Source: Pseudoxanthomonas koreensis (lineage in GTDB: Bacteria; Pseudomonadota; Gammaproteobacteria; Xanthomonadales; Xanthomonadaceae). From it: a stretch of 64,000 nucleotides of DNA. A model generated the notes under the pieces. That model ran no database searches. It was not told the origin of the DNA and saw nothing but the letters and a program-made list of their open reading frames with translations. The translations under genes were made by a program, and so were the position numbers. The stretch's first letter is position 1; the number at the start of each line of letters is the position of its first letter. The DNA lies in contig NZ_PDWM01000004.1 of the NCBI RefSeq assembly GCF_010093225.1, positions 1 through 64,000 on the forward strand, written 5' to 3'. Positions 46,734-55,313 of this stretch are shown here, in pieces.

Positions 46734-46832
46734 GGAGGACTCCGTTGAGTGGTTGGTAGCCAGGTGGCGGATGCGCCTCCCGATGTGGAAGGTGAAGCAC
46801 CCGTTAAACGCCGCGCAGCTTGCTACCCCGGT

Positions 46833-46861
46833 CTGACAGAAGCGCGACCGCCACATGACAG
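46833..46861 (-). promoter_or_regulatory. Pho-box half-sites for the porin gene
   Basis: On the minus strand CTGTCAT (46855-46861) and CTGTCAG (46833-46839) lie 22 bases apart, two helical turns, with a weak middle site CGGTCGC (46844-46850). They match the PhoB repeat CTGTCAT on 11-base periodicity and lie about 100 bases before the porin start. Confidence 0.6.
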
Positions 46862-46886
46862 GACGATGAAGGAGGTCCGCCGCGCC

Positions 46887-46926
46887 CCGTCATGCCCCTG
46901 TCACATGCGCTACGCGCTGTTGTCAT
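46887..46926 (+). promoter_or_regulatory. Pho box of the first pstS
   Basis: CCGTCAT-GCCC-CTGTCAC (46887-46904), two seven-base repeats with a four-base spacer, each one mismatch from consensus. A third half-site TTGTCAT (46920-46926) is 22 bases after the second. The array is about 87 bases before the pstS GTG. Confidence 0.7.
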
Positions 46927-47012
46927 CGACCCGTTATGGAATGGCGGCCGATGGAAGCGGGTGCTGCCCGCGTCCCGCCACCACCCTTCCACCGCTTAAC
47001 GGAGCCTTTCCC

Positions 47013-48035
47013 GTGAACTCCAGGTTCAAGTTCCGCCTTGCCGCCGCGCTGATCGCGGTGTCCTCCTCGATTTCCCTCGCCCACGCCAACGACGTGACCG
47101 GCGCCGGCGCCTCCTTCATCTATCCGGTGATGTCCAAGTGGTCGGCCGACTACAAGGGCGCGACCGGCAAGCAGGTCAACTACCAGTCGATCGGTTCCGG
47201 CGGCGGCATCGCCCAGATCAAGGCGGCCACGGTGGACTTCGGTTCCTCCGACGCCCCGCTCAAGCCGGAAGAGCTTGCCAAGTACGGCCTGGCGCAGTTC
47301 CCCTCGGTGATCGGCGGCGTGGTGCCGATCGTCAACGTCGCCGGCATCGCCCCCGGCGCGCTCAAGCTCGACGGCCCGACCCTGGCCAACATCTTCCTGG
47401 GCAAGATCAGCAAGTGGAACGACCCGGCGATCGCCGCGCTGAACCCGGGCCTGGCGCTGCCGGACCAGAAGATCACCGTCGTGCACCGCTCCGACGGCTC
47501 GGGCACCACCTTCAACTTCGTCAACTACCTGTCCAAGGTCAGCCCGGAGTGGAAGCAGAAGGTCGGCGAAGGCACCTCGGTGCAGTGGCCGGCCGGCATC
47601 GGCGGCAAGGGCAACGAGGGCGTGACCGCCTACGTCAAGCAGATCAAGGGCGGCATCGGCTACGTCGAGCTTTCCTACGCCCTGCAGAACAAACTGTCCC
47701 ACGCCGCGCTGAAGAACGCCGCCGGCAAGTTCGTGCAGCCCAGCGAGGAATCCTTCGCCGCTGCCGCCGCCAGCGCCGACTGGGCCAAGTCCAAGGACTT
47801 CTTCCTGGTGATGACCAATGCGCCGGGCGAGGCCTCCTGGCCGATCACCGCGACCAACTTCATCCTGATGTACAAGCAGCCGAAGAACGTGGCCGGCGCG
47901 AAGAACGCCCGCGACTACTTCAAGTGGGTCTACGCCAACGGCGACGCCCAGGCCCGCCAGCTGGACTACGTGCCGCTGCCGGACGCCCTGGTCAAGCAGA
48001 TCGAGGCCTACTGGGCGCAGAACCTGAAGTTCTGA
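47013..48035 (+). CDS. Phosphate ABC transporter periplasmic binding protein PstS (soluble copy)
   Basis: Binds phosphate in the periplasm for PstCAB. The start is GTG at 47013 with GGAG eight bases upstream; 340 residues. The signal peptide (FKFRLAAALIAVSSSISLAHA) has no lipobox Cys, so the mature protein is soluble. The mature part begins NDVTGAGASFIYPVMSKW; phosphate-contact motifs GAGASF, SIGSGGGIAQI, VDFGSSDAPL and HRSDGSGTTFNFVNYLS are intact. It is preceded by a Pho box and followed by a strong hairpin, then a second pstS. Confidence 0.95.
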   Translation: MNSRFKFRLAAALIAVSSSISLAHANDVTGAGASFIYPVMSKWSADYKGATGKQVNYQSIGSGGGIAQIKAATVDFGSSDAPLKPEELAKYGLAQFPSVIGGVVPIVNVAGIAPGALKLDGPTLANIFLGKISKWNDPAIAALNPGLALPDQKITVVHRSDGSGTTFNFVNYLSKVSPEWKQKVGEGTSVQWPAGIGGKGNEGVTAYVKQIKGGIGYVELSYALQNKLSHAALKNAAGKFVQPSEESFAAAAASADWAKSKDFFLVMTNAPGEASWPITATNFILMYKQPKNVAGAKNARDYFKWVYANGDAQARQLDYVPLPDALVKQIEAYWAQNLKF

Positions 48036-48218: not shown

Positions 48219-49313
48219 ATGAACCCCTCCCCGGTCCGCCTCCTCGCCCTGTCCCTCGCCGCCACCGTGGTCCTCGCGGCCTGCAAGCCTGCCGGCGACG
48301 CCAACACCAGCGCCACCCCCACGACTGCCCAGGGCGAAGCCGCCCCCGCCACCGGCGAGCAGGTCGCCGCGCAGATCTCCGGCGCCGGCGCCTCCTTCAT
48401 CTTCCCGCTGGTGTCGAAGTGGTCGGCCGACTACAACGCCGCCACCGGCAACAAGGTCAACTACCAGTCGATCGGTTCGGGCGGCGGCATCGCCCAGATC
48501 AAGGCCGGCACGGTCGATTTCGGCTCTACCGACAAGCCGCTGCCCAGCGACGAGCTGGCCGCCGCAGGCCTGGGCCAGTTCCCGTCCGCGATCGGCGGCG
48601 TGGTGCCGGTGTTCAACCTTGATGGCGTGGAGCCGGGCGCGCTGCGCCTGACCGGCCCGCTGCTGGCCGACATCTTCCTCGGCAAGGTCGGCAAGTGGAA
48701 CGATCCGGCGATCGCCGCGGCCAACCCGGGCGTAACGCTGCCGGACGAGAAGATCACCATCGTCCACCGCTCCGACGGCTCGGGCACCACCTTCAACTTC
48801 AGCAACTACCTGTCCAAGGTCAGCCCGGAGTGGAAGGACAAGGTCGGCGAAGGCACCTCGCTGCAGTGGCCGTCCGGCGTGGGCGGCAAGGGCAACGAGG
48901 GCGTGGCCGCCTACGTCAAGCAGATCAAGGGCGGCATCGGCTACGTGGAGCTGGCCTACGCGCTGCAGAACGCGATGCCCTATGCCTCGATGCGCAACGC
49001 TGCCGGGCAGTGGGTGAAGCCGGACGCGGCCAGCTTCGCCGCCGCCGCGGCCAGCGCCGACTGGGCCAATGCCAGCGACTTCAACCTGGTGATCACCGAC
49101 GCGCCCGGCGCGCAGGCCTGGCCGATCACCGCGACCAACTTCATGCTGATGCACAAGCATCCGCAGGACCCGGCGCGCAGCCAGGCCGCGCTGGAGTTCT
49201 TCAAGTGGGCCTTCGAGCAGGGCCAGCCGCAGGCCGAGGAGCTGCACTACGTGCCGCTGCCGCCGGAGCTGGTGCAGCAGATCGAGGCGTACTGGGCGGC
49301 CGAGTTCAAGTGA
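48219..49313 (+). CDS. PstS paralogue, lipoprotein form
   Basis: A second phosphate-binding protein, 364 residues. The signal ends in a lipobox (VVLAAC, Cys at 22), so it is membrane-anchored, followed by a flexible Ala/Thr/Gly linker (about 25-52). The domain, from ISGAGASFIFPLVSKW, is very similar to the first PstS: SIGSGGGIAQI, VDFGSTDKPL, HRSDGSGTTFNFSNYLS. Tandem duplication is the simple explanation. It has its own Pho box and is followed by a hairpin before pstC. Confidence 0.93.
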   Translation: MNPSPVRLLALSLAATVVLAACKPAGDANTSATPTTAQGEAAPATGEQVAAQISGAGASFIFPLVSKWSADYNAATGNKVNYQSIGSGGGIAQIKAGTVDFGSTDKPLPSDELAAAGLGQFPSAIGGVVPVFNLDGVEPGALRLTGPLLADIFLGKVGKWNDPAIAAANPGVTLPDEKITIVHRSDGSGTTFNFSNYLSKVSPEWKDKVGEGTSLQWPSGVGGKGNEGVAAYVKQIKGGIGYVELAYALQNAMPYASMRNAAGQWVKPDAASFAAAAASADWANASDFNLVITDAPGAQAWPITATNFMLMHKHPQDPARSQAALEFFKWAFEQGQPQAEELHYVPLPPELVQQIEAYWAAEFK

Positions 49314-53072: not shown

Positions 53073-54386
53073 ATGTCCAAGCAGAAACCCGCCGCCATCG
53101 CACTCGGCACCGCCCTGGCAGGCCTGGCCCTGGGCGGCGGCGCGTTCGCCATGGAGCCGCTGGCCCAGGGCTACATGCTCGCCGCCGGCGAAGCCGCCAA
53201 GGCCCAGGAGGGCAAGTGCGGCGAAGGCAAGTGCGGCATCGAGAAGGTCGATACCGACAAGGACGGGCGCATCTCGCAGGCCGAGTTCGCCGCCGCCCAT
53301 CCCGACAAGGCCGACCAGTTCGCGAAGATCGACGCCAACGCCGACGGCTTCATCGACGAGGCCGAGCGCAAGGCGCACCACGCGGCCAAGGGCAGCGAGG
53401 GCAAGTGCGGCGAGCAGACCGGCAAGGCCAGCGAGGGCAAGTGCGGGGAAGGCAAGTGCGGCGAGGGCAAGTGCGGCGGGACGGTGGGAATTTTCCCGGT
53501 TGGAGTTTCTCACCGACTGCCGATGACTTTGCCTGACGCCAGCGCCGGACTGGGACTGCGGCGCGCGATGCTCGACGAGCTGCGCGCCGCGCCCGCCGGT
53601 GCCTTCGATTTCCTCGAATGCGCGCCGGACAACTGGATCGGCGTGGGCGGGCGGCTGGGCGAGGCACTGGACGACCTGTCGGCGCGGCATCCACTGACCT
53701 GCCACGGCCTGTCGCTCTCGCTCGGCGGCCCCGCGCCGCTGGACGAGGTGTTCCTGGCCAAGACCCGCCGCTTCCTCGACCGCCACCGGGTGTCGCTGTA
53801 CAGCGAGCACCTGAGCGCCTGCAGCGACGCGACAGGCCACCTGTACGACCTGATGCCGGTGCCGTTCACCGAAGCGGCCGTGCGCCACGTCGCCACGCGC
53901 ATCGGCCGGGTGCAGGACCTGCTCGGCCGCCGCATCGCGGTGGAGAACGTCTCCTACTACGCCGCCCTGCCGGTGGCGCCTGCGCAGGCGCTGGAGGAGG
54001 CGGACTTCGTCAACGCGGTGCTGGCCGAGGCCGACTGTGACCTGCTGCTGGACGTGAACAACGTCTACGTCAACGCGGTCAACCACGGCTACGACGCGCG
54101 CGTCTTCCTGGCGCGGATGCCGTGCGCGCGCATCGCCTCGTACCATATCGCCGGCCACTACGACGAAGCCGACGACCTGAAGGTCGACACCCACGGCGCG
54201 CCGGTGAAGGACGCCGTCTGGAGCCTGCTCGCCGAGGCCTACCGCCTGCACGGCGTTCGCCCCACCCTGCTCGAGCGCGACTTCAATCTGCCGCCTCTTC
54301 CGGTGCTGCTGGACGAGGTCGAGCGCATCCGCCAGCTGCAGCGCGAGGCCGCCGGCGTGGCGCCGGCGGGCGTGGCCCATGCCTGA
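53073..54386 (+). CDS. Fused RiPP metallophore precursor (HvfA/bufferin-like) and DUF692 MNIO modifying enzyme
   Basis: One 437-residue frame that joins what are normally two genes. Residues 1-26 are a Sec signal (ending AFA). Residues 46-135 carry six EGKCG motifs (Cys 49, 54, 112, 124, 129, 134, the only cysteines in this part) and two canonical EF-hand loops (D60-E71 and D87-E98) between the motif clusters. From Met151 (ATG 53523) a full DUF692 multinuclear iron oxidase follows, with conserved H211, E245/H246, E291, D327/N330, H358/H362, D372/H374 and E401 in [13 protein letters not shown] and LLERD contexts. In HvfA of Haemophilus, EGKCG cysteines are turned into oxazolone-thioamide groups by such an enzyme; here enzyme and substrate would be one chain. 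GGAG stands eight bases before the ATG. An indel-created fusion or a sequencing error cannot be excluded. Confidence 0.8.
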
Positions 54387-55134
54387 GCCGGCGGACCCGC
54401 CGGCGGCGTTCGCCGCGCCCCTGCGCGATCCGCAGGGGCATCCGGCGCCGCCGGGCATCGAGCCACGGCGGATGGCGGTGTACCGCGAGCTGTTCTTCAA
54501 CAACATCACCGGCCTGCTCGGTGGCAATTTCCCGGTGATCCGCCGGACCCTGGGTGAGGACGCCTGGCGGGCGCTGGTGCGGCGCTTCTACGCCGGGCAC
54601 GCGGCACGCACGCCGCTGTTCCCGGAACTGGCGCGCGAGTTCATCCGCTTCCTGGAAGCCTGCGGCGACGACGCCGGGCCGCCCTGGCTGCTGGAGCTGG
54701 CGCACTACGAGTGGATCGAACTGGCGGTGCAGGTCGACGACAGCCCGTTGCCAGCGCACGATCCCGGCGGCGACCTGCTCGAAGGCGTGCCGGTGGTGTC
54801 GCCCTGGATCCGCGCCCTGGCCTACCGCTGGCCCGTCCACACGATCGGGCCGCAGCACCGGCCCGATGAAGCGCCGGCGACACCGACCCTGCTGCTGGTC
54901 CGCCGCGACCACGATGGCCAGGCCCGTTTCGCGGCGATCTCGCCATTGGTCTACCGGCTGCTGGAGCTGCTGGGCGAAGGCGGGCGCAGCGGCCGCGCGC
55001 ACCTGGCCGCACTGGCGGAGGAAGCGGGCGTGCCGGCCGACACCGGCTTCATCGACCAGGGCGCGGCGATGCTAGAACGCATGCGCGGCGAAGCCACCCT
55101 CCTCGGCACCCTCCCCCGCAGCAGCCCCCTGTAG
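54379..55134 (+). CDS. DUF2063 partner protein of the MNIO enzyme (HvfC/BufC family)
   Basis: A 251-residue protein that in known loci binds the precursor leader and the DUF692 enzyme and is required for modification. The N-terminal DUF2063 domain reads [49 protein letters not shown]; residues 130-251 form the second winged-helix-like part ([16 protein letters not shown]). The ATG overlaps the fusion gene by eight bases. The stop TAG belongs to a GTAG repeat. The DoxX-type membrane gene that follows in many such loci is absent. Confidence 0.85.
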
Positions 55135-55262
55135 GAGCCCACTTCAGGGGGCGACCCGATGCGGCCGGGATACGCGGTGTCCAACGCGCAGCCTCCGGAG
55201 CGGCCGCGTGCAACACCGCTGCGTCCGCCCCCGTCGGGTCGCCCCCTGAAGTGGGCTCCTAC
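55131..55262. repeat. REP pair (BIME-like) after the RiPP locus
   Basis: Perfect 27-base arms at 55131-55157 and 55236-55262, each the GTAGGAGCCCACTTC unit followed by a G-run and GACCC, in inverted orientation around a 78-base centre. The left GTAG provides the stop codon of the DUF2063 gene. The unit recurs once at 14924-14954. Confidence 0.9.
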
Positions 55263-55313
55263 AAAAGGCATCGCGGCGGGCGGCCGGGCCGGCCGCTCTG
55301 CTAACCTTTCCGC

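What the first reader, a model, noticed from the sequence alone, without database searches (positions are those of the whole stretch)
53073..54386. Metallophore RiPP precursor and its DUF692 MNIO enzyme encoded as a single polypeptide
One uninterrupted frame holds a Sec signal, six EGKCG motifs and a complete 287-residue DUF692 enzyme. In HvfABC and bufferin loci these are separate genes: the precursor is exported after the cytoplasmic enzyme modifies its cysteines. A fused product raises a real topology problem, since an N-terminal signal would carry the enzyme towards the periplasm. It may be cleaved, act in cis before export, or be made also from the internal ATG at 53523.
Basis: partly seen in the sequence, partly recalled or inferred. 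Interest (0 to 1): 0.92.

Follow-up and report, generated by a model that had tools for sequence, protein, structure and literature searches.

The report
Stop codon lost between two genes
In one bacterium the genes for a copper-binding peptide and for the enzyme that modifies it run together into a single reading frame, most likely because one base of a stop codon changed; the relatives examined keep the two genes apart, so this looks like a local accident rather than a new kind of protein.

Summary
The frame is real as assembled: 53073-54386 (+), 437 codons, no internal stop. Residues 1-136 are an HvfA-type precursor (signal-like N-terminus, EF-hand, six EGKCG); 151-437 are a complete HvfB-family MNIO; hvfC follows. 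The fusion is not a conserved architecture: of 125 distinct loci held, 124 have a stop after the precursor and only this one does not, including 15 of 15 comparable genus relatives. Capped scans of 395 family, 398 order and 369 class genomes (overlapping sets) showed no other confirmed fusion. The junction explains itself. Relatives typically end KCGG-x-x-stop; here it reads KCGG-T-V-GGA, one base from TGA (53487). The following 12 codons look like old spacer (GC3 5/12 against 93% in flanking coding sequence), ending at the ancestral ATG, 53523. In 3 of 15 genus relatives, losing one stop would give the same fusion. I read it as an ordinary hvfABC operon with a stop-loss: a real mutation (most likely) or a one-base miscall. 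The domains show no decay. A functional self-modifying fusion is not excluded, but nothing found favours it.

The parts
53073..54386 (+). The merged open frame, 437 codons plus stop
53073..53480 (+). HvfA-type precursor part (residues 1-136): signal-like N-terminus, two EGKCG, EF-hand region, four EGKCG
   Evidence: NF050137 and EF-hand_5 above their cut-offs; signal by eye; aligned with genus precursors
53208..53237 (+). EGKCG motifs 1 and 2 (residues 46-55)
   Evidence: sequence
53397..53477 (+). EGKCG motifs 3 to 6 (residues 109-113 and 121-135)
   Evidence: sequence
53487..53489 (+). GGA codon in the place where relatives have the precursor stop; one base from TGA
53487..53522 (+). 12 codons of probable former stop and spacer, GC3 5/12
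53523..54386 (+). HvfB-family MNIO part (residues 151-437) with its ancestral ATG
   Evidence: PF05114, NF003818; start aligns with relatives
54379..55134 (+). hvfC, DUF2063/RRE partner gene, overlapping the end of the merged frame by 8 bases
   Evidence: NF050145 284.6 bits against 142

Best explanation
An ordinary hvfABC-type operon (EGKCG copper-binding RiPP precursor, MNIO, DUF2063 partner) in a Pseudoxanthomonas-like bacterium, in which the precursor's stop (probably TGA) has become GGA by one base change, so that translation runs in frame through a short former spacer into hvfB. SHOWN: intact domains, one frame, non-coding character of the linker, a stop present in every other locus compared. 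INFERRED: ribosomes starting at 53073 make a 437-residue HvfA-HvfB protein, and little free HvfB is made, because the ancestral ATG has no well-spaced Shine-Dalgarno and lies inside a translated frame. INFERRED: the fusion keeps the signal/leader segment that HvfBC recognises, so with HvfC it may modify its own or a neighbour's cysteines in the cytoplasm; Sec export of a folded metalloenzyme is unlikely, so mature periplasmic peptide would appear only after proteolysis. The likely net effect is reduced metallophore output in this strain, through a recent change that has not yet led to decay.
For: In 158 loci with an MNIO (125 distinct), only L001, this window, has precursor and MNIO in one uninterrupted frame. 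Of 114 relatives tabulated the stop is TGA in 80, TAA in 31, TAG in 3, usually two or three codons after the last KCG; here KCG-G-T-V is followed by GGA. The 12 codons from 53487 have GC3 5/12 against 128/136 and 266/287 on either side; binomial p 4e-6; 0 of 401 flanking windows as low. M151 aligns with relatives' starts. MNIO deviates at 0 of 81 near-constant columns. In the genus, 5 of 15 operons have both genes in one frame and 3 of 15 have a single stop between them (14, G016). Only one PF05114 gene in the genome.
Against: No reads, so a miscall is open. The closest relatives held are only about 80-83% identical in the MNIO, so neither the ancestral stop codon nor the age of the change can be read directly. 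Linker DNA does not align convincingly with most relatives' spacers (best z 2.8 for L011 among genus members). Pairwise MNIO dN/dS is slightly higher for this genome (0.32-0.37) than among four relatives (0.16-0.31), which could mean slight relaxation. Reduced output is not tested at all.
Confidence: 0.62

Rival explanations
1. A one-base consensus error: the true base at 53487 is T, hvfA ends KCGGTV-TGA, and a 33-base spacer separates two ordinary genes. The fusion is then not real.
For: One substitution gives an end like those of relatives (tails GSV, GAV, GMV; TGA in 80 of 114) and a spacer length within their range (quartiles 20.5, 52.5, 72.5). Draft assembly of 93 contigs. Both domains look fully maintained.
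Against: The genome is rated 99.95% complete with 0.17 contamination, and consensus substitution errors are rare in general (recalled). No sign of local misassembly was seen, but none could be looked for.
Confidence: 0.22
2. A selected, functional self-modifying protein: the MNIO part modifies the attached EGKCG array in cis with HvfC, and the modified peptide is released by proteolysis in the linker or works in the cytoplasm.
For: Both domains intact. HvfBC uses the signal segment as leader, and an artificial HvfB-HvfC fusion is active (PMC13419390 passages). FonB Arg15/Arg16 near its N-terminus lie next to the substrate in a model (PMC12668002 section 13), so an N-terminal array could plausibly reach the active site (inference). 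Borosins show that precursor-enzyme fusion can work (PMC8429565 passages).
Against: No second lineage with the fusion among 124 other distinct loci or in the listed rows. Linker has the composition of spacer. A catalytic enzyme would be made one-to-one with its substrate and carry an export signal.
Confidence: 0.12
3. Recoding or internal initiation still yields separate proteins, for example a -1 frameshift at TTTCCCG in the linker that ends the precursor at 53534, or strong initiation at 53523.
For: The frame reached by a -1 shift has a stop at 53534-53536, just inside hvfB; TTTCCCG lies in the register of a slippery heptamer (read).
Against: By my own estimate such a heptamer turns up by chance in about 1 of 20 linkers of this length; the resulting tail is unlike those tabulated; the best SD-like motif is about 16 bases from ATG 53523, against about 7 for hvfA.
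Confidence: 0.04

Closest known systems
hvfABC (oxazolin) operon of Haemophilus influenzae and related EGKCG clusters such as fon (PMC13419390, PMC12668002; passages and single sections seen)
   Same: EGKCG precursor with N-terminal signal, HvfB-family MNIO and HvfC-family partner, in the order A-B-C
   Different: There precursor and enzyme are separate genes; here they share one frame. An EF-hand region lies between the EGKCG groups here.
Buf_EGKCG/oxazolin and Buf_EGKCG with EF-hand precursors (PMC12452194, section 15 and passages seen)
   Same: EGKCG motifs; EF-hand in the precursor
   Different: The paper's EF-hand type has two EF-hands after a short EGKCG part; here EGKCG lies on both sides. 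The fusions in the passages seen join precursors to MerC, cytochrome/FGE or EF-hand, and an MNIO to nitroreductase, none a precursor to its MNIO.
Borosins, types I-III (PMC8429565, passages seen)
   Same: RiPP core and modifying enzyme in one polypeptide
   Different: A methyltransferase with the core at the C-terminus, found in many fungi; here an oxidase with the precursor at the N-terminus, seen once.
Engineered HvfB-HvfC fusion (PMC13419390, passages seen)
   Same: A fusion of Hvf proteins that stays active
   Different: Artificial, and joins enzyme to partner, not precursor to enzyme.

Membership tests
HvfB family MNIO | NF003818 above its curated cut-off | tested here: met
   415.4 bits against 360
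HvfB family MNIO | Conserved residues kept | tested here: met
   0 of 81 near-constant columns changed; metal ligands were not named one by one
Bufferin maturase BufB | NF050167 above its cut-off | tested here: not met
   262 bits against 310
EGKCG/oxazolin-type precursor | NF050137 domain above its cut-off | tested here: met
   37.4 bits against 19.5
HvfA equivalog | NF050188 above its cut-off | tested here: not met
   24.2 bits against 95
hvfABC-type operon | HvfC-family partner gene next to hvfB | tested here: met
   NF050145 284.6 bits against 142 at 54379-55134
hvfABC-type operon | Precursor and MNIO as separate genes | tested here: not met
   one frame here; separate in the other 124 distinct loci
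hvfABC-type operon | Sec signal on the precursor | tested here: inconclusive
   looks like one by eye; no predictor run
hvfABC-type operon | DoxX-like HvfX gene | not tested
   the gene after hvfC is an RNase_T-family exonuclease; DoxX was not searched for in the genome
hvfABC-type operon | 5-thiooxazole on the cysteines, copper binding | not testable with these tools
   needs mass spectrometry
Conserved precursor-enzyme fusion (borosin-like architecture) | Fusion present in more than one lineage | tested here: not met
   1 of 125 distinct loci; none further confirmed within their thresholds and capped lists

The most novel reading that the evidence does not exclude
A natural self-modifying RiPP protein: a signal-bearing EGKCG precursor fused to its own MNIO, oxidising its cysteines in cis, or between molecules, together with HvfC before the peptide is released. 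It would be the first natural precursor-MNIO fusion among the genomes and papers searched here.
Probability: 0.12. Interest if true: 0.75.

Novelty: new variant of a known kind. Interest (0 to 1): 0.3.

Why it matters
If real and translated, it is a natural experiment on where and when HvfBC acts: it separates modification (possible in the cytoplasm, in cis) from export of the mature peptide (blocked, or dependent on cleavage). If it is a miscall, it is a caution about single-codon 'fusion proteins' in compact RiPP operons: in 3 of 15 genus relatives one stop-codon change would give the same picture.

Tried and rejected
Deletion of a palindromic spacer element as the cause. Five genus relatives carry variants of a CCCGCACATCCATGTGCGGG hairpin in the spacer and the palindrome is dispersed in these genomes. 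But the tree (support 55) puts this genome beside relatives with 23-base spacers (L008, L013), so no deletion is needed; I dropped the claim.

Apparent further fusions (long matches without stops) in G066, G114, G039, G056, G258, G060, G074 and G724: rejected. The precursors there have their own stops and lie in another frame; the long matches are out-of-frame readings of EGKCG repeats or reach only the last precursor residues. G004 and G030 likewise (L009, L025).

L134, where one script found no stop: it had taken a chance SCG behind the true stop; recount.

dN/dS as a test for decay: indecisive. For the precursor the pairs with this genome give 0.22-0.30 and the pairs among four relatives 0.12-0.29; for the MNIO 0.32-0.37 against 0.16-0.31.

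Similarity of the linker to relatives' spacers: weak; best z 2.8 (L011) in the genus and 3.6 (L024) overall, most near 0.

No structure prediction was run: the fold of the family is solved (3bww and others) and a model would not tell whether cis modification occurs.

Papers: searches gave no paper that, in the listings or passages seen, describes a natural precursor-MNIO fusion. I saw passages or single sections of seven papers, no whole text.

Full report
OBSERVATION. One open frame runs from ATG 53073 to TGA 54386, 437 aa, no internal stop. Residues 1-136 are an EGKCG-type RiPP precursor: signal-like N-terminus (by eye), two EGKCG, an EF-hand region, four EGKCG; NF050137 scores 37.4 bits against 19.5 and EF-hand_5 31.9 against 25.9. 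The stricter HvfA model NF050188 stays below its cut-off (24.2 of 95). Residues 151-437 are a full MNIO: PF05114 329 bits, NF003818 'HvfB family' 415.4 against 360; the bufferin model NF050167 stays below its cut-off (262 of 310). hvfC follows at 54379 (NF050145, 284.6 against 142), phoU lies upstream (TIGR02135), and an RNase_T-family exonuclease comes after hvfC. The genome (3.05 Mb, 93 contigs, 99.95% complete) has no other PF05114 gene.

RELATIVES. The genus is Pseudoxanthomonas-like: contigs of genus members have the lengths of named records, e.g. 3,541,173 bases, CP060419.1, Pseudoxanthomonas sp. NC8. Of 17 genus genomes, this one included, 15 have a match at E<=1e-60; G008 has none, and G016 falls short because its locus is cut by a contig end. 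Counting G016, 15 genus relatives can be compared and all 15 have a stop after the precursor. Over everything fetched, 158 of 159 loci hold an MNIO, falling into 125 distinct ones by a 180-base tag; 124 have a stop after the precursor and only this window does not; none was dropped. Two genus members (G006, G016) have no spacer at all: the precursor stop lies in the start region of hvfB, out of frame. The junction is labile in this clade.

WIDER SCANS. Family: 395 genomes, 248 with a match at E<=1e-100 (match list cut). Order: 398 genomes, 46 at E<=1e-128. Class: 369 genomes, 39 at E<=1e-105. The sets overlap. In the listed rows, matches that cover much of both parts carry at least one stop, apart from this genome and a few that I fetched and found to be separate genes. 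Fusions below these thresholds or in unlisted rows would be missed. On plasmids, 0 of 351 matched records had a place covering 80% of the query.

JUNCTION. Of 114 relatives tabulated, the precursor stop is TGA in 80, TAA in 31 and TAG in 3, most often shortly after the last KCG (tails such as GAA, GMA, GSA, GSV, GMV, GAV). This window reads KCG-G-T-V-GGA: GGA at 53487-53489 stands where the stop would be, one base from TGA. The following codons run to ATG 53523, which aligns with the hvfB start of relatives. The 12 codons 53487-53522 have GC3 5/12, against 128/136 in the precursor and 266/287 in the MNIO; binomial p 4e-6; 0 of 401 flanking 12-codon windows are as low. This fits former spacer, not an evolved linker. 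A one-base indel is a poorer account: the other frames stop only at 53524 and 53534. That the ancestral stop was TGA, and that one substitution did it, is inferred; the nearest relatives held are about 80-83% identical in the MNIO.

HOW SURPRISING. In the genus, 5 of 15 operons have precursor and MNIO in the same frame and 3 of 15 have just one stop between them (14, G016; one of the three, L005, has a damaged MNIO end). The same change there would give the same picture. The larger set (73 of 114 in one frame) is biased, since same-frame pairs score higher in the searches.

STATE OF THE GENE. The MNIO deviates at 0 of 81 columns constant in at least 98% of the others, and at 0 of 140 within the genus. 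Its terminal branch (0.197) is within the range of the other genus loci in the tree (0.03-0.27). Pairwise dN/dS is slightly higher than among four relatives. There is no sign of decay: the change is recent, tolerated or not real.

MECHANISM (mostly inferred). PMC13419390 (passages and introduction) reports that HvfBC prefers full-length HvfA, that the Sec signal acts like a leader, that HvfC is required, that an artificial HvfB-HvfC fusion is active, and that the product once called oxazolone-thioamide is now assigned as 5-thiooxazole. On that basis an HvfA-HvfB protein could be modified with HvfC in the cytoplasm, in cis or between molecules. PMC12668002 section 13 places substrate beside Arg15/Arg16 of FonB, so reach from an N-terminal array is plausible; their equivalence to R163/R164 here is my inference. 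Release of mature peptide would need proteolysis, and Sec export of a folded iron enzyme is unlikely (general knowledge). Free HvfB from 53523 is probably minor: the best SD-like motif is about 16 bases upstream, against about 7 for hvfA; but several genus relatives also lack a good SD there. I expect reduced metallophore output.

VERDICT. Real frame, correctly described. Most likely a one-base stop-loss in an ordinary hvfABC operon (0.62), then a miscall (0.22), then a selected self-modifying fusion (0.12), then recoding (0.04). No paper in the listings or passages describes a natural precursor-MNIO fusion; precursor-enzyme fusion as a principle is known from borosins (PMC8429565, passages).

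Noticed in passing
L006, L009, L010, L011, L012 (hvfA-hvfB spacer); also elsewhere in the genus genomes: The spacer holds variants of a palindrome CCGCACATCCATGTGCGG. With up to 2 mismatches it occurs in 17 of 17 genus genomes (21 matches on both strands in this genome, six places exact; reversed control 0), so it looks like a dispersed palindromic repeat.
   Followed up: partly
L014 (G006) and L156 (G016): The precursor stop lies in the start region of hvfB, out of frame, with no spacer and no obvious ATG for hvfB.
   Followed up: partly
L006 (G001): Two precursor genes in tandem upstream of hvfB.
   Followed up: no
   Followed up: no
53208-53477 and precursors of genus relatives: An EF-hand region lies between two groups of EGKCG motifs; the EF-hand precursor type described in PMC12452194 section 15 has its EF-hands after the EGKCG part.
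   Followed up: no
55131-55270: Inverted repeat after hvfC: TAGGAGCCCACTTCAGGGGGCGACCC and near its reverse complement about 100 bases on (read).
   Followed up: no
46749-48035 and 48219-49313: Two neighbouring genes for similar phosphate-binding-type proteins (both PF12849) ahead of the transporter genes and phoU.
   Followed up: no
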